Of a stretch of DNA of 46,351 bases, positions 6,661 to 25,300 are shown piece after piece (the stretch's first letter is position 1; each line of letters starts with the position of its first letter). The translations under genes and the position numbers were made by a program. The notes under the pieces were generated by a model that worked only from the letters and a program-made list of their open reading frames with translations, did not search any database and was not told the origin of the DNA. Origin of the DNA: Bacteroidota bacterium (lineage in GTDB: Bacteria > Bacteroidota > Bacteroidia > Palsa-965); the NCBI GenBank assembly GCA_016194975.1, contig JACQAM010000021.1, positions 1 to 46,351 on the forward strand, given 5' to 3'.

Positions 6661-6687
6661 GTCAGACTGAGCTTGTCGAAGTCTGAC
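6661..6687 (-). repeat. REP-like palindrome, copy 2
   Basis: A 27-bp element with perfect 8-bp arms, GTCAGACT and AGTCTGAC, around GAGCTTGTCGA. On the minus strand its first G is the last base of the TAG stop of the DUF4249 gene. It is related to copy 1 at 6259-6302 and to the core of the hairpin at 35703-35789. Confidence 0.85.
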
Positions 6688-7550
6688 TAATGACAAATAA
6701 TTGTATCGTAACTCGGATTATATCCGCACCAGATTCCGAGTCCGCCGTGTACATTGGTTTCAATAGTTCCCGGCGCTGCAAATGGATTTCCGTTATTCTC
6801 CACATCCACTTCGTAAGAGCGGAAAAAATTTACTTCGGCCTGACCAATCGTGCAGAATTTTACAGCAATGGTATCTCCGGTCTTGAAAAATCCGGCTTGC
6901 GGTCCATTATCTTCCGGTGCAGTTGATCCCGGATCACTCGGGCGATTGTAAGCGAAATCAAAATTTTTTCCTTCTACAAAACGATCATCGAAAGCAGAAC
7001 CGAAAGGTGCCCGGAAACGATCATCAACTCCAACACGTTTTGTAAACCAGCGATATCCGTTTCCAATTCCAACCGGATCTGTCATGTGCGCCCACGCAAA
7101 ACCGAGACTGTCTTCATTCGGTTCTATTTTGAACCAAACACTGTCGAGCGGAATTGCAGTATGAATCATTGTTGATGCGGTAGCGGTTTTTCCATCGGCA
7201 ACAACTTTCAATAAATAAGTGTGCCCTTCCTGCCCGTACACATGCGTGCCCACCCACACAATAGGAATTGGTTTCAGCGGATCGAATGAAGTGTGAAGCG
7301 TGTCAATATTATTTCCGTCGGTTACGGTAACAAATGCATTTGTGATGAGATAATTTGCGAGCGAAGCAGAATCGACCGGGTCAAAATAACCGGTACTCCA
7401 GGTGAGATTGATCTCTGTGAGTTGCCCGGTTTCAATTCCACCATCGACCACAATTTTTTTCTCCACTTCAGGAAGTGTGATCTGGATTTCTTTTTCGCAG
7501 GAAAAAAGAAGCAGCGTGAAGACAAGTGGAATGATGAATTTATTTTTCAT
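6687..7550 (-). CDS. DUF4249-type lipoprotein, partner of the TonB receptor
   Basis: A 287-residue lipoprotein. The N-terminus MKNKFIIPLVFTLLLFSC ends in a lipobox, with the acylated Cys at residue 18. The rest matches the DUF4249 pattern: KKIVVDGGIETGQLTEINLTW, a second strand block around AFVTVTDGNN, GHTYLLKV, and a C-terminal part with FCTIGQAEVNFFRSYE. DUF4249 proteins are regularly encoded next to TonB-dependent receptors in Bacteroidota and probably cap or assist them at the outer membrane, as SusD does for SusC, though they are unrelated to SusD. Here it lies 60 bases downstream of the receptor gene in the same direction, so they are probably co-transcribed. The substrate is unknown. 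Confidence 0.88.
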   Translation of the reverse strand: MKNKFIIPLVFTLLLFSCEKEIQITLPEVEKKIVVDGGIETGQLTEINLTWSTGYFDPVDSASLANYLITNAFVTVTDGNNIDTLHTSFDPLKPIPIVWVGTHVYGQEGHTYLLKVVADGKTATASTMIHTAIPLDSVWFKIEPNEDSLGFAWAHMTDPVGIGNGYRWFTKRVGVDDRFRAPFGSAFDDRFVEGKNFDFAYNRPSDPGSTAPEDNGPQAGFFKTGDTIAVKFCTIGQAEVNFFRSYEVDVENNGNPFAAPGTIETNVHGGLGIWCGYNPSYDTIICH

Positions 7551-7610
7551 TGTGAAAAGTGCTTTCGTAACTCATTTCGTTTTTAGTAAAGTTTTCGTAA
7601 TTCGTACTCA

Positions 7611-9995
7611 TCAGAATTTAAAGTTCCACGTTATCGAAGGAAGTATCGGGAAAAGTGAAACCTGTTTTGCAGTTACTTTCAGTGTTCCGTCGGCCACGCT
7701 TCCTTCATTGTCGAAGAAAATAAAATAAGGATTGTGGCGGTTGTACACATTGTAAACTGAAAAATTCCAGTTGTTCTCGTAAGGAATTTTCTTGAAAAGT
7801 TTTTTTGGCCTGCACGTGTAGGTGATGGAAATATCGAGGCGGTGATAAGGGATCATCCGGTAACCATTTCGCGGACCATAATCGGAAACAATATTTCCTT
7901 CAATGATGTAACGCTGTATCGGAAGCGTGATCGCATTGCCGGTTCCATAAACGAAAACACTTCCGAACGTCCAGTGATCATTCAGATTGTAAATTAAAAC
8001 AAGGGAAACATCGTGACGCCGGTCGTAGCGCGCGTAAAAAGTTTTTCCGCTGTCTATGTCGGGAAAATTTCTTGTCGTCCAGGAAAGTGTGTAACCTGCC
8101 CATCCGTTCAGCTTGCCGGTTCTCTTTTTGAAAAAGAATTCGGCGCCATAAGATTGTCCTTTGCCGAATACAAAATTATTATCGGTGTTGTTATTCACAT
8201 TGTCTTCGGGCAATGCGCCGGGAGCAAATTCCACCTGGTTGTACATTTTTTTATAATACACTTCAACCGATGATTCATATTTGTTGTGATAGAAATTCCT
8301 GAAGTATCCTGTAGCCACCTGCCACCCTTTCTGTGGCTTTACTACATCGGAACACGGAACCCAGATGTCAGTAGGAAGTGAGATCGGAGAGAGCGTTGCG
8401 AGATGAACGTATTGCAGATTGTAAGTGTAAGATGCTTTGATGGACGACTGATCATCGAGAATGAAACGCATGGAAACTCGCGGCTCCGGCCCACCGTAAT
8501 CTTTTACTTTTTTGAATTTATTATAATGGATCGTGTCCACCGTTCTTCCCGTTACATCCTGAATAAAACGATCGAAAGGGCCAACCATGATAAAATAAGA
8601 ATAACGCATACCAACGGTAAGCCGCAAACGATCTGTGATGTCCCAGTCATCATTCACATACACGCCCACCTCGTGTGCGTATTGTTTTTTCAGTCCGCCG
8701 AGATCGAACACGGTGTCGCCCGATTTTGCAGAAACATTATTGGGTGTGAAAATGTGCCAGCAGTAATTCGTTCCGAAGCGGATGTAATGTTTGCTGTTCG
8801 GAAGAAAACTGAAATCTATCTTATTATTGAAATCGCGTATGCCGGAAAATAACTTGAATTCAAATCCATCCTGTTCTGCGCCGAAAGAAAATTTATAATC
8901 ACTGAAAACAGCCGTGGAATTCACGAAAATTCTCGGGTTAATGAGATGGTTCCACCTCAGCGAAGTAGTTGCATTTCCCCAGGGAATGTTCACTTTGAAA
9001 TCCGATTTATTGTCGTTATAGGTAAATACATCGCGGCCAAAATATCCACTGAGGAAAACGGTATTTTTCTGGTTGATCCTCCAATTCAATTTAGCATTGA
9101 GGTCATAGAAATAATATCCCGATCCGTAGAATGGAGAAGTTGTTTTGATGAAAGGTTTCATCAGCACATCGATGTAAGTTCTTCTTGCGGAAACAATGAA
9201 TGATGCCGTATCTTTTTTGATCGGCCCCTGCACGGTCATGCGCGAAGAGATCACACCAATGCCGCCGTCCACCTGGAATTTCTGGTTGTTGCCTTCGTTC
9301 ATGGTAATGTCCAGTACAGAAGAAAGCCGTCCGCCATATTGCGCCGGCATTCCTCCCTTGATGAGGTTCACATCTTTGATCGCATCACCATTGAAGACGG
9401 AAAAAAATCCGAACAGGTGTCCTGCATTGTAAACGGTGGCTTCATCCAGCAAAACAAGATTCTGATCGGGCCCGCCACCACGCACATAAAAACCTGCATT
9501 TCCTTCGGCGCCGCCCTTCACTCCGGGAAGCAACTGAATTGTTTTGAGAACATCCACTTCACCGAGAAAAGCAGGAATCTGTTTCACCTGTTTCATCTCG
9601 AGACGATTGGTACTCATTTGCCCGTCGGTCACATTCTCATCTTCTTTTTTATCGGTGATCACTACTTCCTGATTTTTGTGTTCTTCTAGTTTAATATCAA
9701 GATGAATATCGGATGTGAGAACAAGTTGTTGCGTGTAATCATCAAGTCCCACAAATTGGGCAGTAAGCGTGTACGTGCCGGAATCTGCAGTGATGGAATA
9801 AAATCCATAGGTATTCGTACTCGCCACTTTCAGCGGATCTTTCAGCGTCACCACCGCACCGATGATCGCTTCTCCACTGGAAGCTTCACGCACAAATCCG
9901 CTCACGGTGAATTTTTTTGAAGACTGCGCCTGCAGCGAAAAAAAATCCAAAAGAAGAAAAGGAATAAGAAAAAGAAAATATTTTGACCGATTCAT
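7611..9995 (-). CDS. TonB-dependent outer-membrane receptor with N-terminal carboxypeptidase-regulatory-like domain
   Basis: A 794-residue receptor. Signal peptide (residues 1-24), then a CarboxypepD_reg-like domain (about 28-105: FTVSGFVREASSGEAIIGAVV, and TYGFYSI), then a TonB plug (about 125-235) with GFYVRGGGPDQNLVLLDEATVYN, then a ~550-residue 22-strand-type barrel ending in Phe (TWNFKF), as expected for BAM-assembled barrels. It imports a ligand across the outer membrane using energy from TonB-ExbBD. It is shorter than SusC (about 1000 residues) and its partner is DUF4249 rather than SusD, which argues against a classic polysaccharide-utilisation locus. No carbohydrate-active enzymes are nearby. 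Promoter candidate at 10013-10020. Confidence 0.95.
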   Translation of the reverse strand: MNRSKYFLFLIPFLLLDFFSLQAQSSKKFTVSGFVREASSGEAIIGAVVTLKDPLKVASTNTYGFYSITADSGTYTLTAQFVGLDDYTQQLVLTSDIHLDIKLEEHKNQEVVITDKKEDENVTDGQMSTNRLEMKQVKQIPAFLGEVDVLKTIQLLPGVKGGAEGNAGFYVRGGGPDQNLVLLDEATVYNAGHLFGFFSVFNGDAIKDVNLIKGGMPAQYGGRLSSVLDITMNEGNNQKFQVDGGIGVISSRMTVQGPIKKDTASFIVSARRTYIDVLMKPFIKTTSPFYGSGYYFYDLNAKLNWRINQKNTVFLSGYFGRDVFTYNDNKSDFKVNIPWGNATTSLRWNHLINPRIFVNSTAVFSDYKFSFGAEQDGFEFKLFSGIRDFNNKIDFSFLPNSKHYIRFGTNYCWHIFTPNNVSAKSGDTVFDLGGLKKQYAHEVGVYVNDDWDITDRLRLTVGMRYSYFIMVGPFDRFIQDVTGRTVDTIHYNKFKKVKDYGGPEPRVSMRFILDDQSSIKASYTYNLQYVHLATLSPISLPTDIWVPCSDVVKPQKGWQVATGYFRNFYHNKYESSVEVYYKKMYNQVEFAPGALPEDNVNNNTDNNFVFGKGQSYGAEFFFKKRTGKLNGWAGYTLSWTTRNFPDIDSGKTFYARYDRRHDVSLVLIYNLNDHWTFGSVFVYGTGNAITLPIQRYIIEGNIVSDYGPRNGYRMIPYHRLDISITYTCRPKKLFKKIPYENNWNFSVYNVYNRHNPYFIFFDNEGSVADGTLKVTAKQVSLFPILPSITWNFKF

Positions 9996-11390: not shown

Positions 11391-11894
11391 ATGAAAAAAA
11401 TTCTTTTCCCGGTCTTCTTATTCTTTTCCGGGTCGTGTTTGATTTCCTGCGGAAATGATGAGAAAAAAACAACTCCATCCGATAGTAACAGCGCTATGAA
11501 TCTTCATAATTCCGATACGCCGAATAATTCATTGCATCCGCCTTTAATGGATTCGGGTGCGCAGATCACGGTGAAAACTTACGAGGTGACGGATAGTGCC
11601 GGAAGAATTTCGCAGGGTTGGGGCTATGATCTTTTTCTCAATGGCAAGCGTGTCATTCATCAACCGATCATTCCCGGCCTTCCCGGTAATAATGGTTTCA
11701 AAACACAGGCACTCGCAGAATCTGTTGGCGAACTCGCTGCAAAAAAAATGCGTGAACAGGGATCACTGCCATCGATCAGCATTCACGATCTCGACAGTCT
11801 CGGTGCTATCTCTCATCACCTGGCTGACAGTCTCAATGAATTAAGCAAGAAAAATTCGCACAACAATTCTGTTCCGGTCAGCAAAGACAAATGA
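11391..11894 (+). CDS. DUF4907-like lipoprotein, first gene of the Kelch operon
   Basis: I start it at MKKILFPVFLFFSGSCLISC (167 residues); an in-frame ATG at 11376 would add five residues before the signal. Cys20 is the lipidated residue. After a low-complexity Ser/Asn/Pro linker, the C-terminal ~85 residues fit the DUF4907 pattern: YEVTDSAGRISQGWGYDLFLNGK, VIHQPIIPGLPGNNGF, then ALAESVGELAAKKM and LDSLGAI. From general knowledge of the family, DUF4907 genes tend to lie beside Kelch-repeat genes; here the stop overlaps the start of the first Kelch gene by four bases (ATGA), implying translational coupling. It probably docks with the secreted propellers at the cell surface. That role is inference. 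Confidence 0.82.
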   Translation: MKKILFPVFLFFSGSCLISCGNDEKKTTPSDSNSAMNLHNSDTPNNSLHPPLMDSGAQITVKTYEVTDSAGRISQGWGYDLFLNGKRVIHQPIIPGLPGNNGFKTQALAESVGELAAKKMREQGSLPSISIHDLDSLGAISHHLADSLNELSKKNSHNNSVPVSKDK

Positions 11895-13081
11895 AAAATT
11901 ATTTATTTATTTTTCTTTTTTCAATATCGCTTTGTGATGTTGCACGCGCACAGGGGTGCTGGATTCAACGTGCGAATTTTGCCGGCCCGGCCCGGCATCG
12001 CACTGCTGCTGCTGCGGTTGGAAATCACGGCTATATTGGACTCGGTCACATCAATGCTATTGTGGATGTACTTTTTGATGACTGGTTTGAGTATGATCCT
12101 TCTTCTGATTCGTGGACACAAAAAGCAAATTACGGTGGAGGCCCCCGCATGCATCCTGCCACTTTTGTGATCGATGGAAAAATTTATGTAGGAACCGGCC
12201 GCGACACCAGTCAAACACTTCACCAGGATTTCTGGTGTTATGATCCGGTCACAAATATGTGGACTTCCATTGCTGATTTTCCCGGCGCTGCACGTCGCGG
12301 AGCAGTTGCTTTTACCATCAACGGACTCGGTTATGTTGGAACAGGATCCTATCATTCGAATTTTTTCAAATACGATCCTGCCTCTGATTCGTGGTCGAAT
12401 GTGGCTCCGCTTCCCGGGCCCGGAAGAATTTCCTGCGTGGCGTGCGCTATAAACGGGAAAGGATATTTGTCGACGGGTGATAATGGAAGTGGAGCAACAG
12501 GAGATATCTGGGAATATGATCCGGCATTTGATAATTGGACCATGAAAGCAAATCTTCCCGGTTTGCCGAGAATGGAAGCAGGTGGATTTGCGCTCAATGG
12601 AAAATTTTATGTGGGATGCGGTGATGATATGCCGAGTGGAACCAACTATGGCGATTTCTGGTGTTACGATCCGCCAACCGATTCATGGAGCCAGGTGTGT
12701 GATTTTACCGGAATTGCAAGACGGTACCCGGCTTCATTCGTGATTGGCACTCATGCTTATCTTGGTCTCGGTACCAATGGAACTAATTTCAGCGATCTCT
12801 GGGAAACCGGGATTCTCATTGGTGTAAATGAAATTCAACCCGAAATTTCTTTCAGCATTTCACCGAATCCGGTGATTGATAATGCTGTCATCAGTTTCGG
12901 AAAAAATATTCCGGATGGAACTTTTGAGATTCTCGATGAACAGGGAAAACTCATCCGAGCCGTGAAATTTTCAGGGAATGAATTCGATTTCTCGCGTGAG
13001 GGTATCTCTTCCGGAAATTATTTCATCCGCATCCGCGAATCTCAGAAAACATCCGTCACAAAAAAGATCATCATCAATTGA
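11891..13081 (+). CDS. Secreted Kelch propeller with T9SS type A tail, paralogue 1
   Basis: A 396-residue protein. A signal peptide (YLFIFLFSISLCDVARAQ) precedes six Kelch-like repeats of about 48 residues. Each repeat runs from a basic/aromatic start (FPGAAR), through a strand pair (FTINGLGYVGTG), to YDPASDSW. Six repeats fit a six-bladed beta-propeller. The last ~75 residues (SISPNPVIDNAVISF...GKLIRAVKF...GNYFIRI...TKKIIIN) are a T9SS type A sorting domain, so the protein crosses the outer membrane through T9SS and is probably anchored or released at the surface. It overlaps the lipoprotein gene by four bases and is followed 17 bases later by paralogue 2. Confidence 0.93.
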   Translation: MKNYLFIFLFSISLCDVARAQGCWIQRANFAGPARHRTAAAAVGNHGYIGLGHINAIVDVLFDDWFEYDPSSDSWTQKANYGGGPRMHPATFVIDGKIYVGTGRDTSQTLHQDFWCYDPVTNMWTSIADFPGAARRGAVAFTINGLGYVGTGSYHSNFFKYDPASDSWSNVAPLPGPGRISCVACAINGKGYLSTGDNGSGATGDIWEYDPAFDNWTMKANLPGLPRMEAGGFALNGKFYVGCGDDMPSGTNYGDFWCYDPPTDSWSQVCDFTGIARRYPASFVIGTHAYLGLGTNGTNFSDLWETGILIGVNEIQPEISFSISPNPVIDNAVISFGKNIPDGTFEILDEQGKLIRAVKFSGNEFDFSREGISSGNYFIRIRESQKTSVTKKIIIN

Positions 13082-13098
13082 ATAACTGAAAAATTAAC

Positions 13099-14280
13099 AT
13101 GAAAAAATTATTGATCATTGCGTTGTGTTATAGTACAACTACTGTTTTTTCGCAGGGTTACTGGACGCGCCTTACCGATTATGGCGGTGCGGCAAAAAGA
13201 TATGCTGCCTGTTTCGCAATAGGAGCGAAAGCGTATGTGGGAACCGGCAATGGCCCGGCGCTCAGCCAGGAATTCTGGGCATGGGACCAGGCCTCTGATA
13301 CCTGGACACAGATCGCCGATTTCATTGGAAGCGCACGACAGCATGCAGTAGGATTTACGATCGGAAGCAAGGGCTACGTAGGAACCGGCGAAGACGGAAG
13401 CGGATTCACGAAAGATTTTTACGTGTACGATACTACTGCGAATGCGTGGACACAGCGCGCCGATTTTGGCGGATCGCCACGTTCGGGAACGGTAGGATTC
13501 TCCATCGGAAATTATGGTTACATCGGTACAGGAGAAGATACGAGTGGTAATGTCCAGGATTTCTGGCAATATGATGCAGCTGGCGATTCATGGTCTCCCA
13601 TCACAAGTTTTCCCGGTGCAGGACGCCGTTATGCTTCCTGCTTCGTCATTGGAACAAATGCTTATGTGGGAACCGGCAAAGATAATTCCGGAGGTGGTAA
13701 TGTAGATCTCTGGATGTGGAGCCAGTCGTCTGGAATGTGGACGCAAAAGTCAAACTATACTGGTACTCCTCGCTGGGGCTGTTTTGCATTTGCTATTGGT
13801 GATAAAGGATATTTCGGAACTGGTTTCGATGGCGCTGCCGGAACAAACGATCTGCGTCAATATGATACACTTTCCGATTCCTGGTCGGTACGTTCACCAT
13901 TCACAGGAACTTCAAGAGAATTCGCGGTAGGATTTTCCATCGGAACAATAGGATATATGGCTACCGGCGACGATCCTTTTTCCAAAAAAGACCTATGGGA
14001 ATATGATCCGAATTCTACAGCCGGGTTAGAAGTTAATAATGAAACGGAAAATTTTATTTCTGTCGGCCCTAATCCTTCCGATAGATTGTTTAACTTCACT
14101 ACGCATAACCCAGAGGGAGAACTGAAAATTTTTGATGCGGCCGGCCAAAAGATTTTTCAAATGAAAATTACATCCGTCAATACAAACATTGATATGGCCG
14201 GAAAAGTTCCCGGAATTTATTTTTATCAGTTTACCGATGGCATCACAATCCGTGCAAGCGGAAAATTGTTGCTCCAATAA
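13099..14280 (+). CDS. Secreted Kelch propeller with T9SS type A tail, paralogue 2
   Basis: A 393-residue paralogue with the same plan: signal peptide (LLIIALCYSTTTVFSQ), six Kelch repeats, and a C-terminal sorting domain (SVGPNPSDRLFNFTT...LKIFDAAGQKIFQMKI...GIYFYQFTDG). The propeller repeats are the most regular of the set; YVGTGEDGSG-type turns in repeats 2-4 are acidic and could bind a metal ion or a polar ligand. The tail ends in SGKLLLQ rather than a basic TKK motif, but the overall pattern holds. The tail sequence differs more from its neighbours than the propeller does. Confidence 0.93.
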   Translation: MKKLLIIALCYSTTTVFSQGYWTRLTDYGGAAKRYAACFAIGAKAYVGTGNGPALSQEFWAWDQASDTWTQIADFIGSARQHAVGFTIGSKGYVGTGEDGSGFTKDFYVYDTTANAWTQRADFGGSPRSGTVGFSIGNYGYIGTGEDTSGNVQDFWQYDAAGDSWSPITSFPGAGRRYASCFVIGTNAYVGTGKDNSGGGNVDLWMWSQSSGMWTQKSNYTGTPRWGCFAFAIGDKGYFGTGFDGAAGTNDLRQYDTLSDSWSVRSPFTGTSREFAVGFSIGTIGYMATGDDPFSKKDLWEYDPNSTAGLEVNNETENFISVGPNPSDRLFNFTTHNPEGELKIFDAAGQKIFQMKITSVNTNIDMAGKVPGIYFYQFTDGITIRASGKLLLQ

Positions 14281-14332
14281 AAAAATCAATCACCTTTCAT
14301 CCGCTTGAAAAATGAACCTAAAAAATATTCCA

Positions 14333-15490
14333 ATGAAAAAATCGATACTTAGAACAACACTCATCCTGTTGTTGGTTCTTGCTTCATTCACAGGAACGCG
14401 CGCACAGGGAAGTTACGCCTGGGTACAACGCGCAACTTTTATGGGACCCGCGCGACATCATTGCGCTGCATTTTCAGTAGGTAGCCGTGGTTATGTCGGA
14501 ACAGGATGGAATGGTATGGCAACGTACGACGACATGTACTCTTATGATCCGGGAACAGATACGTGGGAACAGATCGCTAATTTTCCTGGCGGACAATCGG
14601 AGGATGTACAGGGATTTGGCATTGGTGTAAAAGGATATGCAGGTACGTGGAATAATATGTGGTCGTACAATCCTGCAACAAATACCTGGGCGCCCATTGC
14701 AAGTTGCCCTCTCCAGATCAGTAATTATGGATCCGTTGCATTTGCAATTGGAACAAAAGGATATATCTGCGACGGATATAATCTTGTGGAATATAATTCC
14801 GGAAATAATTCCTGGTCATACAAACCAAATTATCCGGGCAGTTCATTTTTCTATTCTACCGCCACAACTTACAATGGAAAAGGATATGTATTTCCCGGCG
14901 GCGGAGATTTTTGGGAATATGATCCTTCAATAAATAACTGGATCCCCAGAGCAATGTTTCCCGGTCTCACACGCATAGGGCCTATCAGTTTTTCTTTCAA
15001 TGGTGATGTGTATGTTGGTTTGGGCGCTGAGGCGTGGACGAATATGTTATCTGATTTCTGGCGCTTTGATCCCGTTGGAAATACGTGGACTGAAGTGGAT
15101 GATTTTCCCGGACTGGGAAGAAGATTTTCAATCGGTTTTTCCATTGGTGCGCGCTGTTATGCCTGCAATGGAACGAATGGAACAAACATGCATGATTTCT
15201 GGGAATTCGGATCGCTCTCCGGAATAGAAAACCAAGATGCAAATTCAAATTCTATCAGCATTTATCCGAATCCCGTACAAACTTCTTCGGTCATTTCTGT
15301 AAATGAAAATATTCCGGGTGCAGAATATTCACTCGTCGTTTTCGATCTCAACGGAAATATTATTCGCAGCGAAAAATTCACCGGGCATTCTTACACCTTT
15401 GAAAAAATGGATCTCAGTTCCGGTGTTTATCTCGTGGAATTACGCAACAATGAAAATGTAGCCGCAAGAACTAAACTGATCGTCGAATAA
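14333..15490 (+). CDS. Secreted Kelch propeller with T9SS type A tail, paralogue 3
   Basis: I choose the ATG at 14333 (MKKSILRTTLILLLVLASF), because the seven extra residues of the upstream ATG at 14312 would lengthen the n-region of the signal peptide. 385 residues. Six Kelch repeats, of which repeats 2-4 are shorter (40-42 residues) and lack the acidic GEDGSG turns. One face of the propeller therefore differs from that of paralogues 1 and 2. The tail SIYPNPVQTSSVISV...YSLVVFDLNGNIIRSEKF...GVYLVELRNN...TKLIVE is a textbook type A sorting domain. Confidence 0.92.
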   Translation: MKKSILRTTLILLLVLASFTGTRAQGSYAWVQRATFMGPARHHCAAFSVGSRGYVGTGWNGMATYDDMYSYDPGTDTWEQIANFPGGQSEDVQGFGIGVKGYAGTWNNMWSYNPATNTWAPIASCPLQISNYGSVAFAIGTKGYICDGYNLVEYNSGNNSWSYKPNYPGSSFFYSTATTYNGKGYVFPGGGDFWEYDPSINNWIPRAMFPGLTRIGPISFSFNGDVYVGLGAEAWTNMLSDFWRFDPVGNTWTEVDDFPGLGRRFSIGFSIGARCYACNGTNGTNMHDFWEFGSLSGIENQDANSNSISIYPNPVQTSSVISVNENIPGAEYSLVVFDLNGNIIRSEKFTGHSYTFEKMDLSSGVYLVELRNNENVAARTKLIVE

Positions 15491-15520
15491 AAAAAACCGG
15501 AAATTTCAAACGAATTCATC

Positions 15521-16747
15521 ATGAAAAAAAATAATCTCGCAATAATTTTACTATTGCTTCCGCTCGCAATTTTTTCCCAGAATTCCTGGACGAAAAAAGC
15601 ATCACTCTCCGCAAGTAAACGCATGCGCTCGGTCGCATTCGCCATTGGAGGAAGAGGATATCTCTGCTGTGGCGAAGATTCCAACAGCATCGAACTCAAC
15701 GATTGCTGGGAATATGATCCGGGCTCCGATTCATGGATGCAGAAATCAAGTATTCCCGGGCCGGGCCGCCGCGATGCAGTTGGTTTTGCAATCGGGATGA
15801 AAGGTTATGTTGGAACCGGCATGGATAACACGGACGCATCAGTTGGAAATACGCTTAGTGATTTTTATGAATATAATTCGGTCACGAATGCATGGACAGC
15901 GCGCGCCGCTTATCCCGGTGGATTCGGATGGGGCGTTTATTCTGCAGCAGGATTTGCAACCTCAACCAGGGGTTATATCTGTTGCGGAAAAATAGGGCCG
16001 GCCAATTATGCAAATGATCTTTGGGAATATAATCCTTCGAATAATTCGTGGATACAGAAACCGAATTTTCCAGGCGGGCCTCGTCTCGGACAAATGAGTT
16101 TCGTGATCGGAACCAAAGCTTATGTTGCTTGCGGAACAGATCCTAATTGGTTCACACATGATTTCTGGGAATATAATACTTCAAGTAATTCATGGTCACA
16201 GAAAGCAGATTTTCCGGGATCGGATCGTGCGTTTGGAAGCGCATTCGCACTCGGACAAAAAGGTTATATGGGTATGGGAGAAGACGGTGGTTATAGCGCA
16301 GATTGGTTTGAGTATGATGTAGCTTCCAATTCGTGGAATGTGATCGCCGCATTCGGAAGTGAAGGAAGAAGATCGGCTCCAACATTTGTAATTGCAGGCG
16401 CCGCTTATGTGACAACTGGAAAAGGTGTAAGCGGAAAACACCGCGACACGTGGCAGTACCAACCTTACGTAACCGGAATAAATGAAAATTCCATTGGAGA
16501 AATGTCGGTTTACCCGAATCCTGCAAGCGACGTTCTCAAATTCGATCTTGATCCGCAATTCGTTTCACAACACGATCAACTCTTCATCCAGCTTATTTCT
16601 ATTGATGGAAAAATAATTTCAAAAGAAACTGTCAATGGAAATTCACATATTGAATTGCAGAATCAGAATTGGCCGGCCGGAACTTATCTCTATTCACTCA
16701 CAGACGGCAACAAAAATTTCAGCAGCGGTAAAGTAATCATCTATTAA
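15521..16747 (+). CDS. Secreted Kelch propeller with T9SS type A tail, paralogue 4
   Basis: A 408-residue paralogue: signal peptide (NLAIILLLLPLAIFSQ), six Kelch repeats, and a type A tail (SVYPNPASDVLKFDL...QLISIDGKIISKETV...GTYLYSLTDG). It has extra cysteines in repeats 1, 3 and 4 (YLCCGEDS, YICCGKIG, YVACGTD) that could form disulfides outside the cell; these are absent from paralogue 2. Thirty bases separate it from the gene before and eleven from the gene after. Confidence 0.92.
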   Translation: MKKNNLAIILLLLPLAIFSQNSWTKKASLSASKRMRSVAFAIGGRGYLCCGEDSNSIELNDCWEYDPGSDSWMQKSSIPGPGRRDAVGFAIGMKGYVGTGMDNTDASVGNTLSDFYEYNSVTNAWTARAAYPGGFGWGVYSAAGFATSTRGYICCGKIGPANYANDLWEYNPSNNSWIQKPNFPGGPRLGQMSFVIGTKAYVACGTDPNWFTHDFWEYNTSSNSWSQKADFPGSDRAFGSAFALGQKGYMGMGEDGGYSADWFEYDVASNSWNVIAAFGSEGRRSAPTFVIAGAAYVTTGKGVSGKHRDTWQYQPYVTGINENSIGEMSVYPNPASDVLKFDLDPQFVSQHDQLFIQLISIDGKIISKETVNGNSHIELQNQNWPAGTYLYSLTDGNKNFSSGKVIIY

Positions 16748-16758
16748 AAAAATTTTTT

Positions 16759-17982
16759 ATGAAAAAATATTTTCTCTTTTCCTCAGCGTCGCTTTTCGTT
16801 TTTTCAGTAACAGGTTTCGCACAGATCATGGGCGGATGGCTGCCGAAAGCAGATTTTCCTACCAATGGAAGATCGGCTGCCGTTGGTTTCAATGTCGGAA
16901 CAGCAGCTTACGTTTGCACCGGCGTTGATAGCGGCGGATATAAACGCAGCACTTATCTTTTCAATCCTGCTGTGAATACATGGACACAAGTGGCATCATT
17001 GGGCGGAGTTACCGGCAGCGGGCTCGGTCGCGATGTGGCCATGTCTTTCGCTATTGGAACAAATGCTTACGTTGTAGGCGGACAAGGAACCATTTCTTAC
17101 ATGAGCGATACGTGGAAGTACGATGCAGTGGGAGATGTGTGGACGCAGGTGCAGGCGTTCAATGGAGGAGGACGCCGCGCTGCAGTGGGAATCACGATCA
17201 ATGGAAAAGGTTATATCATTTGCGGACAAGCATCAACCGGTTTGAAAAATGACACGTGGGAATATAATCCAACAAATAATCTTTGGGTGCAGAAAGCGTT
17301 GTATCCCGGAACTGCACGCCGTCTCGCTGTTGGTTTTGTGATCAACAACATTGGTTACGTGGGTACGGGAGATGACGGAATCGCGAAAGGAGATTTTTTT
17401 GCATTCGATCCTACAGCAAATTCCTGGACACCGAAAGCTCCATTTCCCGGAACGCCGCGTTACGGTTCAGTAGGATTTGCACTCAATAACAAAGGATATG
17501 TTGGTTTCGGTTATGACAATACACTGAACAACAGGAAAGATTTTTTCGAATATGATCCTACTTCCAATACGTGGTTGCCGATGCACGATTTTCCGGGAAC
17601 TGCACGCTCCAATTCAGTTGCAGTTTCGTGTCCGAATAACAAAGCGTATGTAGGGCTCGGTTATGATTCACTTTACCGCACCGACTGGTGGGAATTCGAT
17701 CCGCTTTCCACCGGAATAAATGAAAATGTAATTCCGGAAAACGCAGTAAATATTTTCCCGAACCCGATGACGGATGCAGCAACAATTTCCATTGATGCAC
17801 AATATTTGAATTCAGCAACACAAATCTGCATTTATGATCTCAATGGAAAAATGGTGCGTGAGTTGAGTACAAAAAATAATTCTCAACTGAAAATTACACG
17901 CGAAGATCTTTCCCCGGGAATTTATCTCCTGAATGTCCGCTCACAAAATAAACAAGTGACGAAGAAGCTGATCGTAGAATAA
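16759..17982 (+). CDS. Secreted Kelch propeller with T9SS type A tail, paralogue 5
   Basis: A 407-residue last member of the tandem set. Signal peptide (FLFSSASLFVFSVTGFAQ), six Kelch repeats, tail NIFPNPMTDAATISI...QICIYDLNGKMVREL...GIYLLNVRSQ...TKKLIVE. A strong terminator follows 20 bases after the stop, so this is the 3' end of the six-gene operon that begins at 11391. Confidence 0.93.
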   Translation: MKKYFLFSSASLFVFSVTGFAQIMGGWLPKADFPTNGRSAAVGFNVGTAAYVCTGVDSGGYKRSTYLFNPAVNTWTQVASLGGVTGSGLGRDVAMSFAIGTNAYVVGGQGTISYMSDTWKYDAVGDVWTQVQAFNGGGRRAAVGITINGKGYIICGQASTGLKNDTWEYNPTNNLWVQKALYPGTARRLAVGFVINNIGYVGTGDDGIAKGDFFAFDPTANSWTPKAPFPGTPRYGSVGFALNNKGYVGFGYDNTLNNRKDFFEYDPTSNTWLPMHDFPGTARSNSVAVSCPNNKAYVGLGYDSLYRTDWWEFDPLSTGINENVIPENAVNIFPNPMTDAATISIDAQYLNSATQICIYDLNGKMVRELSTKNNSQLKITREDLSPGIYLLNVRSQNKQVTKKLIVE

Positions 17983-18002: not shown

Positions 18003-18034
18003 AACGGGAAGAAGAAACAGCTTCCCGTTTTTTT
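18003..18034 (+). terminator. Rho-independent terminator of the Kelch operon
   Basis: A perfect 9-bp stem, AACGGGAAG/CTTCCCGTT, with a 9-base loop, runs into an uninterrupted T tract. Outer bases TCACAAAA (17991-17998) and TTTTGTGA (18031-18038) extend the pairing. Confidence 0.93.
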
Positions 18035-18372: not shown

Positions 18373-19377
18373 TCAGAACATCGGCTTGAACAACGGCTGA
18401 TCACGGAACCCGACAAGTATCAGGGAAAATTCCCAGGCACCCCTTCCGCCGGTATAATTATTCAGCGATGAAGTATTGATATCATAACTGAAACGGAAAT
18501 AATGCTGATCCTGGCGGAAACCAATGTGCGCAACGATTGCATCTTTCCAGCGATAATCAACACCTGCAAGCGCATCGAGCGAAGAATTTTTGATCTTGTA
18601 AAAAACAAGGCAACCTAAATTCGCATCGTACGCTTTTGCCTGATTCATGTAAATAAAATGGGGGCGAAGTGAAAATTGGTCATTGATGGTTATATCACAT
18701 CCTGTTTGCACCACAAAACGCATTGGTAAACGGCTTTTGTAATCTGTGAATGCGTCATTCGGTTTTGTTACGTGATAAATCGAAAAACCTCCGTAAGGGT
18801 GATATTTTTTTTGTTCGTCAATGTATTTATAAAATACACCCAGGTTAGCATCAAATTTCAGAAGGCTTGTATTCGCCCAGGATTCCTGCGGATCAATCGT
18901 GTTGTCGAATGTTCCGGAAGAAGGAGAATATTGAACATCGTAAGTATAAGATGCAGGATCAAAACTTTTATACAAAATTCCCATTTGCAAACCAACCGTT
19001 AAATAATGTTTGTCCGTTCCGTCCATAATATTGTAAGCGCCGGAAGCCATTAAATTAAGTGTGTTGAATTTTCCAGAGCCAGCGTGATTATCTATAAGAT
19101 ATCCGCCCACTCCCCATTTTTTATCTCCCTTGCGAAGTGGCATGTCGTAGGAAAGAAATGCTGTTGAAAACGGTTTTGCAAGAACACTCCATTGAGAACG
19201 GTAATCGCTAACAATACGGTAATCTCCTTTTTCACCGCAGTACATTCCGGTTAATCCGGGATTCATATAAAGAGAAGCGGCTTCACCGTGCGAAAGATGG
19301 AAATCCTCCTGCGCAACTACGAGTTGTGTTGAAATACAACTTGCACAAATCGCGATAAGAAGTTTAATATTTTTCAT
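18373..19377 (-). CDS. PorP/SprF-family T9SS outer-membrane protein
   Basis: A 334-residue protein with a signal peptide (LLIAICASCISTQLVVAQ) followed by the family hallmark: HLSHGEAASLYMNPGLTGMY, then YRSQWSVLAKPFSTAFLSYD, RKGDKKWGVGGYLIDNHAG and a Gly/aromatic-rich beta-barrel ending in F. PorP/SprF proteins sit in the outer membrane, and each seems dedicated to the secretion or attachment of a specific large T9SS type B cargo, as SprF is for SprB in Flavobacterium johnsoniae. It starts 10 bases after the stop of the 3478-residue adhesin gene on the same strand, so the two form an operon and very likely a cargo/partner pair. Confidence 0.95.
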   Translation of the reverse strand: MKNIKLLIAICASCISTQLVVAQEDFHLSHGEAASLYMNPGLTGMYCGEKGDYRIVSDYRSQWSVLAKPFSTAFLSYDMPLRKGDKKWGVGGYLIDNHAGSGKFNTLNLMASGAYNIMDGTDKHYLTVGLQMGILYKSFDPASYTYDVQYSPSSGTFDNTIDPQESWANTSLLKFDANLGVFYKYIDEQKKYHPYGGFSIYHVTKPNDAFTDYKSRLPMRFVVQTGCDITINDQFSLRPHFIYMNQAKAYDANLGCLVFYKIKNSSLDALAGVDYRWKDAIVAHIGFRQDQHYFRFSYDINTSSLNNYTGGRGAWEFSLILVGFRDQPLFKPMF

Positions 19378-19387
19378 AGCTATTTTT

Positions 19388-22300
19388 TTAACGGATAAGG
19401 GTTACGTCGCCGGAAATTTTATAGTCCACACCGTCAAGCGTGGTGCATGAAACCGTCCATACATAAGTTCCTTCCGGTTGCACTTTTCCTTTATAGGTAC
19501 CATCCCATCCGATACTTTGTGATTCAGAATGGAAAATCAGATTGCCCCACTCATTGTAAATTCTGAAGTCAAGCGTTTTGAATGGCCCGCCTTTGACGTA
19601 CAGAATATCATTATGCCCGTCTCCGTTTGGCGTGAAGGCAGAAGGAACAACAGGCGGATTAGTTTCACCATTCACACATGGAACAAATGTTAATGTATCA
19701 GAAGCAGCGGAAACACAACCTGAATCGCTCATCACAGTCAATGTCACAATGTATATGCCCGTATCAGCATAAATGTAGTTCGGGCTTTGCAAAGTGCTTA
19801 CCGCTGAAGAATCGCCAAAGTTCCAACTCCATGAAACAATTGTTCCGGAAAAAATTAATGAACTGTCAGTGAGGGCAACATCAGTCGGACAAGTTATTAC
19901 TGAAGTATAATTTGCTTGCGGTGCAGGATTTACAAACAATGTTCTAGTAATTGTATCCGAACATCCCGCTGCAGTTGCAACTACAAGTGTAACAGTTTGT
20001 ATTCCCGTTGATGTAAAAGTAAAATTCGGATTTTGCTGAGTAGAAGTATCTGTACCTGAAGTCCAGTTCCACGAAACAATATTTCCGTTCGTATTCGTTG
20101 ATTGATCAGTAAATCCAACAGGAGTATTCACGCATGCAGGCCCGCTCGCAAACAATGCATTTGGTTTCGAATTAATCGTAATCACCATTGAATCGGCAAC
20201 AGGATTACAGAATGCATTTCCTGAAGAAGTAAAGAGGATCGTCACAGTGCCATTTGCAGTATCAAGCGGGCCGGGAGTGTAAACCGGATTTACAATTGAA
20301 TTTGTCGGAGTAAATGTTCCATCTCCATTTGTTGTCCAAAGCATTCCGGTTGAATTGCTGACACTTCCATTGAGAGCAACAAGATCGCCTGCGCAAATCA
20401 AAACATCAGGCCCTGATGCAACCATCGGAGCCGGAGCAAATGTCAATACAACCGTATCCGAAGAAGGAAGACATGCGTTTGTCGCTGCGAGAATTAATGT
20501 GACAGAACCATTTGCAGTATCTGCGCTCGAAGGAATATAAGTTGCATTCAATAAAGAACTATCAGGAGCAAAAATTCCACTTCCGCTGGTTGTCCAATAA
20601 CCGGTTCCCGATCCGCCTTGCACTTGACCGTTCAAAACAATTCCTGCCGTGTTTGCACAAACGGCTGTATCGTTTCCTGCAATCGCGAAAGGAATTGGCG
20701 TAATTGAAATTGTAATTGTATCGGCAGAAGAATTACAGTTTCCATTATTTGTTGAAGTAAGAATCAGTAAAACATTTCCCGTTGTTGTGTCTGCTGAACT
20801 TAAATTATAAGTTGCATTGAGTGTGCTGTCATTCGGAGTGAAAGTTCCGCTGCCGGTTGTTGCCCATATTCCTGATGTTGCTCCACCGGAAATATTTCCA
20901 CTGAGATTTACATTCATTGTTCCGGAACAAATTATTTGTGAATTACCGGCGGAAACAAGCGGAGAAGGGGTGAAGATAATGGTCATACTGTCGCTTACTG
21001 ATTGACATAAACCATTTCCTGTCGATGTGAGAATCAGGATTACACTTCCATTATTTATTTCGGATGTATCAGGAATATAAGTCGCGTTGAATGTGGTGTT
21101 ATTCGGATTGAATGTTCCATTTCCTGCTGTTGTCCATATTCCGCCACTCGCAACAGTTACACTTCCATTTAGAATTACATCGGGATTATTCGAGCAAACC
21201 GATTGATCAGTTCCTGCAAAAACAACAGGCCCCGGATTTACTGTAATCAAAACTGTGTCGGATGATGCAAAGCAACCGCCATTTCCAGTCGAAGTGAGAA
21301 TAAGAATTACGACACCGGTTAATGTATCTGCGTTACTTGGCGTGTAGGTTGCATTTAAATTTGAATTCGATGGAGAGAAAATTCCTGTTCCATTTAGTGT
21401 CGACCAAATTCCAGTTCCGCTTCCTCCTGTAATTGTTCCAGAAAGCTGTGCCGCATTATTCGCACAAGCTGTGATATCATTTCCTGCATCTGCAAATGGC
21501 TGATGAGTAATAGTGAGAATTATAGTATCATTAACCGCAAGACAATTTCCATTTCCTGTTGAGGTGAGAATGAGTGTAACAGATCCTGCAATCGTATCCG
21601 CAGCACTCGGAACATAAGTTGTATTCAGATTTGCATTTGATGGAGAGAAAATTCCTGTTCCGTTTGATGTTGACCATTGTCCAGTATTAGTTGCACCACC
21701 AACATATCCGGAAAGATTTGCATTTGGATTATTTGCGCACGTAGAAATGTCTGCTCCTGCAAGAACATAAGGCGCCGGAGTAATGGTAATCGTAAGACTT
21801 GAAGCAATCGGAGAGCAACCATTTGTTGCAGTATAGGTCAGCACAATATTTCCTGCACTTGTATCTGTAGCGCTTGGTGTGTAAGCCGGATTTGAAACTG
21901 CTACCGACGGAGAGAAAATTCCACTGCCATTTGTCGTCCACGTTCCACTTCCTGTTGACGAGTTTCCACTTACAGAAACCAAATCATTATTGGCACAAAC
22001 AGTTTGATCTGAACTTACACTTACAATCGGAACAGGCTGGAAAAATACAACTACGGTATCATTCACCGGATTGCATAATCCGTTGTTGGTGGAAGTTAAA
22101 ATCAATGTTACACTTCCTGCAGTTGTATCTGCGTTGGATGGAACGTAAGTTGGATTGAGAATATTTGCGTTCGGAGAAAATATTCCGCTGCCAAGTGTTG
22201 TCCATGTTCCCGAACCTGTTGCTGAATTTCCGTTAAGCGGTGTATTCGGACTTGAAATACATGAAATAATATTTGCACCCGCATTTACATTCGGCGCAGT

Positions 22301-25300
22301 GCTGATTGTAATAATCATTGTATCTGTAACACTTAGACAAATTCCGTTTCCGGTTGTGGTAAGAATAATTTGTACAACACCTGCTGCAGTATCTGCGGCG
22401 CTTGGTTGATACGTTGCATTCATGTCGGTAGTGGAAGGAGAGAATGTTCCGCTTCCCATTGTTGACCAAACTCCACCTGTCGCAATTGTAAATGATCCGT
22501 TCAGCACCACCACCGAATTATTTGAACAGACAATCTGGTTAGGTCCCGCATCTGCAACTGGTGCGTCAGAATAAGTGATGACGATTTGATCGGAGACCGC
22601 AAGACATCCACCGTTATGGGTTGAAGTCAATGTAAGTGTAACAGATCCCGCCGCTGTATCCGCAGCACTCGGAATATAGGTTGCATTAATCGTGCTGTCG
22701 TTTGGAGAGAAAGTTCCGCTTCCACTGGTGGTCCATATTCCAAATCCCGTCGAAGAGGTTGCCTGGAAAAGTAAATAAGCACCATTGTTTCCGCATACAA
22801 CAACATCTTCACCAGCATAAACGGATGGTGGAGCAGAATAAATAATTGTGATCGTATCTTGATCAGCAAAACAATTTCCATTTCCAGTTGATGTCAGGTA
22901 TATCGTTACAAAACCCGCTGTTGTGTCGGCAGTGCTTGGAATGTAAGTGACGTTGAGCGTGTTTGTATTCGGAGAAAAAATACCGCTTCCGCTTGATGTC
23001 CATGTACCACTTCCGGTATTTGAAGTTCCCGTAATAGTTGCATTCGGATTATTCTTACAAACAGAAATATTATTTCCGGCATTTACAAACGGTGCATTTG
23101 TAATTGTAATAACCATCGAATCAATTACAGAAATGCATTGTCCGTTTCCGGTTGTGTTAAGATACAACGTCACAGTTCCCGCCGAAGTATCAGCACTACT
23201 TGGTGTGTAAGTTGCGTTCAAAGCGGAATTGGAAGGAGAGAATATTCCGGTGCCCGAACTTGTCCATGTGCCGCCACTCGCGACAGTAACAGATCCATTC
23301 AAAGTAACCACATCATTATTCGCGCAAACTGTTTGATCAGCTCCGGCATTTGAAGTAGGCGCATTTGTAATTGTAACAATCATTTGATCATTCACAGAAG
23401 AACAAGCTCCATTGCCGGTCGAAGTAAGAGTAAGCGTAATTGTTCCGGCGGCAGTATCGGCATTGCTTGGATTATAAGTTCCATTCAACGCGGAATTACT
23501 TGGTGTAAAAGTTCCCGACCCGCTTGTTGTCCAAACACCGCTTCCCGTAGTTGAACTTCCTGCTAAAATAACTGCGGCATTATTCGCACAAACAGTTTGA
23601 TCGGTGCCTGCATTTACAATTGCAGGAATATTTATTACAACATTCACAGTCGCTGCATTACTTGTACAACCATTGACATTCACGGTAACCGAATAAGTTC
23701 CTGCATTTGCCGACGTTACATTTGGAATTGAATTATTCTGAGTGGAAGAGGTAAATCCACCTGGCCCGGACCAGGAATAAGTTGCGCCTGCGACAAGAGT
23801 AGAATTGAGATTAAGAGTTGATCCCTGGCAAAGCGGACTGTTGCTCGAAGCTACCGGCGGATTCGGAGTTGGATTAATGACAACTGAAATTGTTGTTGGA
23901 ACACTTGAGCAACCATTATTTGCAGTCACAGTATAAGTTCCTGCTCCGGCAAGTGTAATATTTGAAATTGTTGGATTCTGCAAAGCAGAGGAAAATCCAT
24001 TCGGCCCGCTCCAGGAATAGGTTGCTCCTGGAATTGTATCAACCGAAAGCTGGAGGGTTGTACCAGAACACAACGGGCTATTGCTGCTTGCAACAGGAGT
24101 CACCGGTGTCGAATTGACCGTGGCAACAGTAATGCTGTCCACACTTGTACACCCATTAACAGTAACAGTGACAGAATAAGTTCCTGTTGCCGCTGTGGTT
24201 GCGTTCGTGATCGAAGGATTTTGCAAAGCAGAAGAAAATCCATTCGGCCCGTTCCATGAATAAGTTGCCCCGATAACATTTGTTGCGAAAAGATTCAATG
24301 TGTTGGTCGTACAAATCGGACTGTTGCTGGAAGCGGAGGGAGCAGTAGGAATTGGATTAATAATAACGTTTGTTGTTGCAGATGAACTTGAACAACCATT
24401 AACCGTTACAGTAACAGAGTAGGTTCCTGTATCCGCAAGCGTAACATTTAGAAGATTTGGATTCTGTAATGAAGAACTGAATCCGTTTGGCCCTGTCCAG
24501 GAATAAGTTGCGCCTGCAATAGTACTTGCCGATAAATTCAGGGTTGTGCCAGAACACAACGGACTGTTACTTGAAGCAACCGGAGGAGCCGGGGTAGGAT
24601 TTACGATTACGGTTATTGTTGCGGCAGAACTGCTTGTACAACCAAGTACAGTTACTGTTACAGAATAAGTTCCTGCACCGGCAAGAGTAATGTTTGTAAT
24701 GTTCGGATTCTGTACACCGGAGGAAAAACTATTCGGTCCAGTCCATGAATAAGTTGCCCCGGCAATATTATTTGCGGTCAAATTAAGTGTGTTGCCTGTA
24801 CATACCGGACTATTGCTTGATGCAACAGGAGGATTTGGAATAGGATGAATAACAACATTAGTTGTAGCATTATTACTCGTACATCCATTAACAGTAACTG
24901 TTACAGTATAAGTTCCTCCATTTGCTAACGTTACATTCGCAATTGTATTATTTTGAGTTGATGAACTGAAACTACTAGGGCCTGTCCAGGAATATGTTGC
25001 TCCTGCCACATTGCTTGCGCTGAGATTTAAAGTCGAACCCACACACAATGGGCTATTGCTGGATGCAGTTGGTGGTGCCGGTGTTGCATTTATTGTTACG
25101 GTGGTTGTCGCTGCTGAACTGCTGGAACAACCGGCAACGGTTACAGTAACAGAATAAGTTCCATTCGCGAGAAGAGTTACGTTGGAAATAGTTGGATTCT
25201 GCGATGATGAAGAAAACCCATTTGGCCCCGTCCACAAATAAGTCGCACCAGCAATCGTAGTTGCAAAAAGATTTAATGCATTGCCTGAACAAACGGGGCT

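What the first reader, a model, noticed from the sequence alone, without database searches (positions are those of the whole stretch)
11391..17982. Six-gene operon of one lipoprotein and five tandem T9SS-secreted Kelch propellers
Five paralogues of 385-408 residues, each with a signal peptide, six Kelch-like repeats and a type A sorting tail, follow a DUF4907-like lipoprotein with overlaps or short gaps and share one terminator. Their acidic turns and cysteines differ between paralogues. That pattern suits a family of surface binders with different specificities sharing one lipoprotein dock. The system-level role appears undescribed; that is inference.
Basis: partly seen in the sequence, partly recalled or inferred. 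Interest (0 to 1): 0.72.

Follow-up and report, generated by a model that had tools for sequence, protein, structure and literature searches.

The report
Three-type Kelch propeller cassette with lipoprotein
A run of genes in an uncultured Bacteroidota bacterium makes a small lipoprotein and five donut-shaped proteins marked for secretion; three of these are distinct types that recur in the same order in other genomes, which suggests the parts of one surface assembly whose job is not yet known.

Summary
In detail: a DUF4907 lipoprotein and five Kelch proteins with type IX tails lie head to tail before a strong terminator hairpin. The model of Kelch 1 closes as a six-bladed propeller.

The reading changes. 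The five are not a recent family of diversifying binders. Kelch 1, 4 and 5 are three old types, A, B and C. They recur in the order A-B-C at 19 of 20 cassette loci, including 10 of 11 type-B loci fetched afterwards as a test and one tandem A-B-C-A-B-C. Kelch 2 and 3 are extras. Of 35 residues fixed in one type and rare in the others, 31 lie in the loops of one face. That fits three non-interchangeable subunits of one assembly.

DUF4907 abuts a Kelch gene at 28 of 29 loci. Where the Kelch is single and untailed, 20 of 22 loci also carry a BamH-like and 18 a BamG-like gene, and 16 a LytS/LytTR pair. This resembles BamG2-BamH2, for which no role has been shown. DUF4907 probably faces the periplasm, so 'surface dock' is not supported. 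Function is inferred throughout.

The parts
11391..11894 (+). DUF4907 lipoprotein, 167 aa; lipobox Cys20 followed by GNDEKK; predicted fold three strands then helices
   Evidence: PF16250 53.8 bits; mean pLDDT 77.3
11891..13081 (+). Kelch 1 = type A: signal peptide, six-bladed propeller, type IX tail, 396 aa
13099..14280 (+). Kelch 2, 393 aa, with type IX tail; extra, outside the A, B and C clades
14312..15490 (+). Kelch 3, 392 aa, with type IX tail; extra, falls in the wider type A clade on a long branch; L052 has an extra of its own at the same place
15521..16747 (+). Kelch 4 = type B, 408 aa, with type IX tail
16759..17982 (+). Kelch 5 = type C, 407 aa, with type IX tail
18003..18034 (+). 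Terminator-like hairpin (9 bp stem, 9-base loop) and T run

Best explanation
The operon encodes the parts of one surface assembly. Shown: three Kelch propeller types (A, B, C) that stay together in fixed order, each with a type IX tail in the window, and a DUF4907 protein attached to Kelch genes. Inferred: A, B and C are exported through the type IX system, anchored at the cell surface and bind one another or three fixed partners through the BC/DA loop face. Inferred: DUF4907 is a dedicated envelope partner, most likely on the periplasmic side, that helps the propellers fold or pass through the envelope, or joins them to the outer membrane. Kelch 2 and 3 are added propellers. The propellers look like binding or scaffold modules, not enzymes. 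In other Bacteroidota the same pair (a single untailed Kelch, often with a surface-lipoprotein signal, plus DUF4907) sits with BamG/BamH-like genes and often a two-component system, so its other setting may be an outer-membrane assembly or sensing complex.
For: Tree of 86 rows: wider A clade 23 rows, B 21, C 21, SH-aLRT 94, 99, 100; each cassette gene falls in the clade its position predicts. Careful tree with bootstraps: B 100/100 (9 rows), type A orthologues 100/97 (5 rows), type C orthologues 99/96 (5 rows). Order A-B-C at 19 of 20 cassette loci, 10 of 11 among type-B loci fetched after the prediction; L141 holds A-B-C-A-B-C. Two cassettes per genome in G002, G005 and G006, both ordered A-B-C. 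DUF4907 abuts a Kelch gene on the same strand at 28 of 29 loci; one further Kelch gene lies 6 kb or more away in those stretches. DUF4907 sits before A at 6 cassette loci and after C at 8, so the link survives rearrangement. 31 of 35 type-specific residues lie in loops of one face, 4 in strands, none in loops of the other. A Cytophagaceae genome has five propeller units fused in one chain beside DUF4907 (L089). G003, rated 100% complete, has no DUF4907, no type-B match and only a tail as best match to Kelch 4.
Against: No interaction was predicted or measured; complexes could not be modelled. Loci share ancestry, so 19 of 20 is not 19 independent events, and B is present by selection at the 11 test loci. 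L139 has B-C without A. Six cassette loci have no DUF4907 in the stretch read: L095-L097 (their genomes have it elsewhere), L137 (a 7.3 kb contig), L140 and L141. DUF4907 occurs without a nearby Kelch at L054, L084 and L085. Window Kelch 2 has no fixed place. In the careful tree the join of the two C groups is 95/76 and the deep joins are weak. The wider A clade also takes in Kelch 3, L052's extra and a lone Kelch, L103. The BC/DA face as a whole is not more conserved than the opposite face in type A (0.415 against 0.46), and the face test on the first orthologues was clear in only 2 of 6 sets.
Confidence: 0.5

Rival explanations
1. One reading: an array of adhesins or glycan binders with different specificities that share a surface lipoprotein dock.
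For: Types differ mostly on the loop face; the window lipoprotein has two acids after the Cys, as in surface export signals (read; signal described in PMC5080379, passages); the number of Kelch genes at cassette loci varies from 2 to 6.
Against: Numbers above three come from extras or a whole-trio duplication; A, B and C are fixed types. DUF4907 relatives mostly lack a surface signal, and 9 of 29 lack a lipobox.
Confidence: 0.2
2. The propellers are independent type IX cargo that only share a transcript, and DUF4907 is an unrelated neighbour.
For: No interaction is shown; the window genome has six other Kelch genes of this kind in 5 other places on 4 contigs, without DUF4907, which is single copy.
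Against: Type B seen in seven families of the class sample with fixed flanks, block duplication, and DUF4907 switching ends yet staying attached.
Confidence: 0.2
3. The propellers are carbohydrate enzymes of the NanM mutarotase or galactose oxidase kind.
For: Three of five pass the Pfam NANM cut-off (70.7, 51.9 and 57.3 against 45; the other two score 30.3 and 44.5).
Against: Matches are partial and repeated; the NCBIfam mutarotase models are missed by a wide margin (best 72.9 against 256 for TIGR03547, 83.6 against 416 for NF010730, 70.4 against 243 for TIGR03548). Different loop faces in five copies argue against one enzyme. Catalytic residues were not examined.
Confidence: 0.07

Closest known systems
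BamG2-BamH2 of Bacteroides thetaiotaomicron (Bt1785-Bt1786) and Flavobacterium johnsoniae
   Same: Single-Kelch DUF4907 loci carry a BamG-like barrel and a DUF4270 (BamH-like) gene next door; Bt1785-Bt1786 are listed elsewhere as a hypothetical protein and a DUF4270 protein (PMC10434189, passage). In 15 of the 20 genomes whose DUF4907 locus carries DUF4270 there is a second DUF4270 gene elsewhere. In the passages I read BamG2 and BamH2 are second homologues with no role shown (PMC12578637; PMC12611786).
   Different: The window locus has no such genes; 10 of 12 family genomes have one DUF4270 gene each and 2 incomplete ones none, and where a cassette is present it is on another contig. In 5 of the 20 genomes the Kelch-linked DUF4270 is the only one found. 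Kelch is not mentioned in the text of either paper. That the loci here are BamG2-BamH2 themselves is inferred from neighbourhood and copy number.
BamI of the Bacteroidota BAM complex
   Same: A six-bladed propeller on a surface lipoprotein that contacts BamH (PMC12578637, passage).
   Different: BamI is described with blades of three to four strands and an extra N-terminal domain. It is not named among the 60 of 115 sequence hits shown for our single-Kelch profile, so kinship is not shown.
Keap1, NS1-BP and LZTR1 Kelch domains
   Same: Fold of six blades. Partner binding through the BC/DA face is recalled for Keap1, not tested.
   Different: Eukaryotic adaptor domains; 19-26% identity.
Type IX secreted cargo with type A tail
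   Same: Signal peptide and tail model.
   Different: An ordered trio of propeller types with a DUF4907 partner was not found described in our searches of one open-access library.

Membership tests
DUF4907 (PF16250) | Score above the curated cut-off | tested here: met
   53.8 bits against 25; the six columns invariant in 29 sequences (Gly, Gln, Pro, Phe, Ala, Pro) are by construction kept
Kelch six-bladed propeller | Six blades that close into a ring | tested here: met
   Model of Kelch 1 only, pLDDT 87.9; Z 36.1-38.8 to Kelch domains. Kelch 2-5 by family matches only
Type IX cargo, type A tail | C-terminal sorting domain above cut-off and signal peptide | tested here: met
   TIGR04183 passed by 5 of 5; Gln after the signal peptide in 5 of 5 (read; rule in PMC10653852, abstract)
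Type IX cargo, type A tail | Actual export and surface anchoring | not testable with these tools
   Needs cells
Surface-exposed lipoprotein (LES) for DUF4907 | Polar residue then two acids near the +1 Cys | tested here: inconclusive
   Present in the window protein (CGNDEK) but rare in relatives: two adjacent acids in 2 of 20 with a lipobox, two acids in six in 4 of 20; 9 of 29 have no lipobox (read by eye)
NanM/YjhT mutarotase | NCBIfam subfamily cut-off | tested here: not met
   Best 72.9 against 256 and 83.6 against 416; the Pfam NANM cut-off is passed by 3 of 5 in partial stretches
Galactose oxidase | Copper ligands and Cys-Tyr link | not tested
   Not examined
BamG2-BamH2-linked Kelch module | BamG-like and BamH-like genes beside Kelch-DUF4907 | tested here: not met
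   None found beside the window operon; the one DUF4270 gene is on contig C8. For comparison: BamG-like at 18 and BamH-like at 20 of 22 single-Kelch loci

The most novel reading that the evidence does not exclude
Kelch-DUF4907 is the propeller part of an alternative, inducible Bacteroidota outer-membrane complex built on BamG2 and BamH2 and, in many genomes, controlled by an adjacent LytS/LytTR pair. In the window's lineage this part stands free of BamG2-BamH2, has split into three fixed propeller types and uses the type IX route in place of the lipoprotein export route.
Probability: 0.3. Interest if true: 0.82.

Novelty: new variant of a known kind. Interest (0 to 1): 0.62.

Why it matters
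Two 2025 papers report that BamG and BamH belong to an unusual Bacteroidota BAM complex and that second copies (BamG2, BamH2) exist, with no role shown in the passages I read. The link found here gives those copies candidate partners, a Kelch protein, DUF4907 and a two-component system, that can be tested by deletion and pull-down in F. johnsoniae. For the type IX field it offers cargo that appears to work as a fixed set of three propellers, and for DUF4907 a first testable role.

Tried and rejected
Enzyme reading (NanM mutarotase): rejected on NCBIfam cut-offs. Link with the TonB receptor and DUF4249 next door: rejected as part of the system, because a receptor of 61-77% identity is present in 10 of the 11 other family genomes with or without the cassette (the exception, G001, is 66% complete) and the pair is known (BT2172/BT2173; PMC11003636, passage). 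DUF4907 fold: no convincing relative among solved structures (best Foldseek E 0.73, best Z 5.6; no sequence match), which does not show that the fold is new. Sigma-70 promoters: at chance level (14 found, 14.3 expected). The Bacteroidota-type promoter pattern (recalled) has one match in the window, on the other strand at 2832-2864, none before the operon. A first guess that DUF4907 was PF16248 was wrong. The BamG-like protein had no Pfam match and was recognised only through solved structures. The lipobox pattern picked the wrong Cys for the window, L056, L066 and L067; I corrected these by eye. The first ORF caller did not show the DUF4907 gene of L050 and L067 in the right frame; the frames were recovered. 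Five long-branch rows (both L098 rows, L099, L109, L111) were left out of the second tree; they are in the first. Of the 12 stretches fetched, L143 (a type-B score of 395, one Kelch that fits the type C profile best) was fetched as a below-threshold comparison and is not counted among the 11. In the class scan only four candidates per genome were scored.
Full report
WHAT IS THERE. Gene 1 is a DUF4907 lipoprotein. Genes 2-6 are Kelch proteins with a signal peptide ending before Gln and a type IX type A tail. A strong hairpin with a T run follows (18003-18034). The predicted structure of Kelch 1 closes as a six-bladed propeller and superposes on solved Kelch domains with Z 36.1-38.8. The DUF4907 model has three strands followed by helices, with no convincing solved relative.

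NEIGHBOURHOOD TEST. DUF4907 was found in 6 of 12 genomes of the family and 24 of 296 genomes sampled over the phylum, the window's own genome counted in both. That gives 29 loci. At 28 of 29 a Kelch gene abuts DUF4907 on the same strand; the exception is L054. In those stretches, about 19 kb each beside the window, only one other Kelch gene lies 6 kb or more away, so adjacency is not chance. A scan of named genomes gave 8 loci. Five look like contigs already seen (equal contig lengths: L083, L086, L087, L088, L090). Of the three new ones L089 has a Kelch gene beside DUF4907 and L084 and L085 do not. So the link is strong but not universal: 29 of 32 in all.

THREE FIXED TYPES. A tree of 56 Kelch proteins put window Kelch 1, 4 and 5 into three groups with the first, the second-last and the last Kelch of the DUF4907-linked cassettes L050-L053. 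A second cassette, led by a tailed protein of 376-414 aa (a GEVED protein in L069), exists in G002, G005 and G006 and, in another family, in L069; its three Kelch genes fall, in the same order, beside A, B and C, though the join for C has support 95/76 only. I then used a profile of type B to scan 395 genomes of the class at E 1e-90. 17 genomes in seven families score 417 bits or more, and every other listed match 395 or less (50 matches in 28 genomes; four candidates scored per genome). Six of the 17 were known; I fetched the type-B loci of the other 11 as a test. Ten have A-B-C in order, one (L139) has B-C only; in L141 the whole trio is doubled as A-B-C-A-B-C. By profile scores alone the first gene of L140 was unclear (type C 529, type A 490 bits); the tree puts it in the A clade. 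In the tree of 86 rows every cassette gene falls into the clade its position predicts. In total the order holds at 19 of 20 cassette loci. B is present by selection at the 11 test loci, so the test is that A and C flank it. The loci are related by descent, so the numbers are not independent events. Window Kelch 3 falls in the wider A clade on a long branch and Kelch 2 in none of the three; L052 has one extra at the same place.

DUF4907 AND THE CASSETTE. Of the 20 cassette loci 14 have DUF4907 adjacent: before A at 6 (window, L050-L053, L136) and after C at 8 (L069, L132-L135, L138, L139, L142). Six have none in the stretch read: L095-L097, whose genomes carry it at their other cassette, and L137, L140 and L141. 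Change of end without loss of contact suggests a working link. In L089 five propeller units lie in one tailed chain of 2375 aa, 17 bases before DUF4907.

THE SINGLE-KELCH FORM. At 22 of the 29 loci there is one Kelch of 330-364 aa (one called at 271 aa) without a detected tail. There the common gene order is BamG-like and BamH-like (DUF4270), divergent from Kelch, DUF4907, histidine kinase, LytTR regulator. DUF4270 is present at 20 of 22, the BamG-like barrel at 18 of 22, kinase and regulator at 16 of 22, within about 5.5 kb (neighbours found by iterated profiles from L057 genes, named by Pfam). The barrel profile matches solved outer membrane protein chains, best 9hiv_F at 2.2e-81 and the chain named Bam G (9n2d_B) at 1.1e-62, and FadL-type channels more weakly. 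The DUF4270 profile matches one chain, 9hjm_G, named DUF4270, at 1.9e-20; the same entry holds a barrel hit, 9hjm_F. Of the 20 genomes with DUF4270 at this locus, 15 have a second one elsewhere and 5 do not. This fits BamG2 and BamH2, which two 2025 papers describe as second homologues (PMC12578637 and PMC12611786, passages). In B. thetaiotaomicron BamG2 could be deleted readily, neither was seen in the proteome, and a double deletion argued against a rescuing alternative BAM complex; in F. johnsoniae neither is expressed at an appreciable level on rich medium. The B. thetaiotaomicron result counts against a general back-up BAM, not against a special-purpose complex. The BAM complex itself contains BamI, a six-bladed propeller lipoprotein that touches BamH (PMC12578637). 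A Kelch propeller beside BamH2 could play a similar part; this is inference. In the window's family 10 of 12 genomes have one DUF4270 gene each and two incomplete ones none, so no second pair was found there.

WHERE THE PARTS SIT. Of the 22 single Kelch proteins 13 have two adjacent acids within eight residues of the lipobox Cys (read), as surface lipoproteins do (PMC5080379, passages); the rest do not, or their start is unclear. Of 29 DUF4907 proteins 9 have no lipobox by our pattern; of the 20 that do, two adjacent acids follow only in the window's and L053's, and two acids within six residues in four (these, L050 and L060). So the Kelch proteins are likely outside and DUF4907 mostly inside. 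For the window protein the signal is ambiguous.

FACES. Strands from the model define two faces. With 20, 21 and 21 sequences of types A, B and C, 35 residues are fixed in one type (80% or more) and rare in the others (20% or less): 31 in BC/DA loops (134 of 284 columns), 4 in strands, 0 in AB/CD loops (Fisher p 2.7e-7 on columns taken as independent, which they are not). Overall conservation of that face is higher than the other in B and C (0.498 against 0.387, 0.501 against 0.282), not in A (0.415 against 0.46). With the first orthologues alone the difference was clear in 2 of 6 sets. The types are thus told apart by residues of one face, which orthologues keep.

PRESENCE AND ABSENCE. G003, same genus and rated 100% complete, has no DUF4907, no type B match, and its best match to Kelch 4 is a tail. 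A TonB receptor like the one next to the window operon is present at 61-77% identity in 10 of the 11 other family genomes, with or without the cassette, so the operon comes and goes beside a stable neighbour.

LITERATURE. In the held library no paper contains DUF4907. One paper holds DUF4270, in a table (passage). No paper holds Kelch with T9SS and sorting domain, or Kelch with Flavobacterium, outer membrane and lipoprotein; one holds Kelch with type IX secretion and Bacteroidetes, a Burkholderia review (listing only). Kelch has 0 occurrences in PMC12578637 (listing) and in PMC12611786. Subscription papers and preprints were not searched.

VERDICT. The locus is real and conserved. The most likely mechanism is a surface assembly of three fixed propeller types exported by the type IX route with a periplasm-side partner, DUF4907. 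The wider link with BamG2-BamH2 and a two-component system is the most consequential lead, and it rests on gene neighbourhood and homology alone.

Noticed in passing
L055-L077 except L069 (22 single-Kelch loci): Common neighbourhood BamG-like, BamH-like, Kelch, DUF4907, LytS kinase, LytTR regulator, with a DUF6268 gene at 9 of 22.
   Followed up: partly
L089:2559-9686: A 2375-aa tailed protein with five Kelch propeller units directly before a DUF4907 gene in a Cytophagaceae MAG.
   Followed up: partly
L141:5958-13294: Tandem duplication of the whole A-B-C Kelch trio in one genome, without DUF4907 in the 19 kb read.
   Followed up: partly
L084:9917-11365 and L085:9848-11288: DUF4907 genes without Kelch, each followed by a gene of 320-342 aa that looks by eye like a small-molecule phosphotransferase (not searched); same arrangement in both.
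   Followed up: no
window 19388-29824 (-) and 18373-19377 (-): A 3478-aa repetitive protein beside a PorP/SprF gene; recalled as a usual adhesin-partner arrangement.
   Followed up: no
window 6687-9995 (-): DUF4249 and TonB-dependent receptor pair, kept in the family with or without the Kelch operon; a known kind of pair.
   Followed up: yes
L069, L095, L096, L097, L132-L135, L142: A tailed protein of 376-414 aa (GEVED domain in L069) leads the second kind of A-B-C cassette; the proteins were not compared with each other.
   Followed up: no
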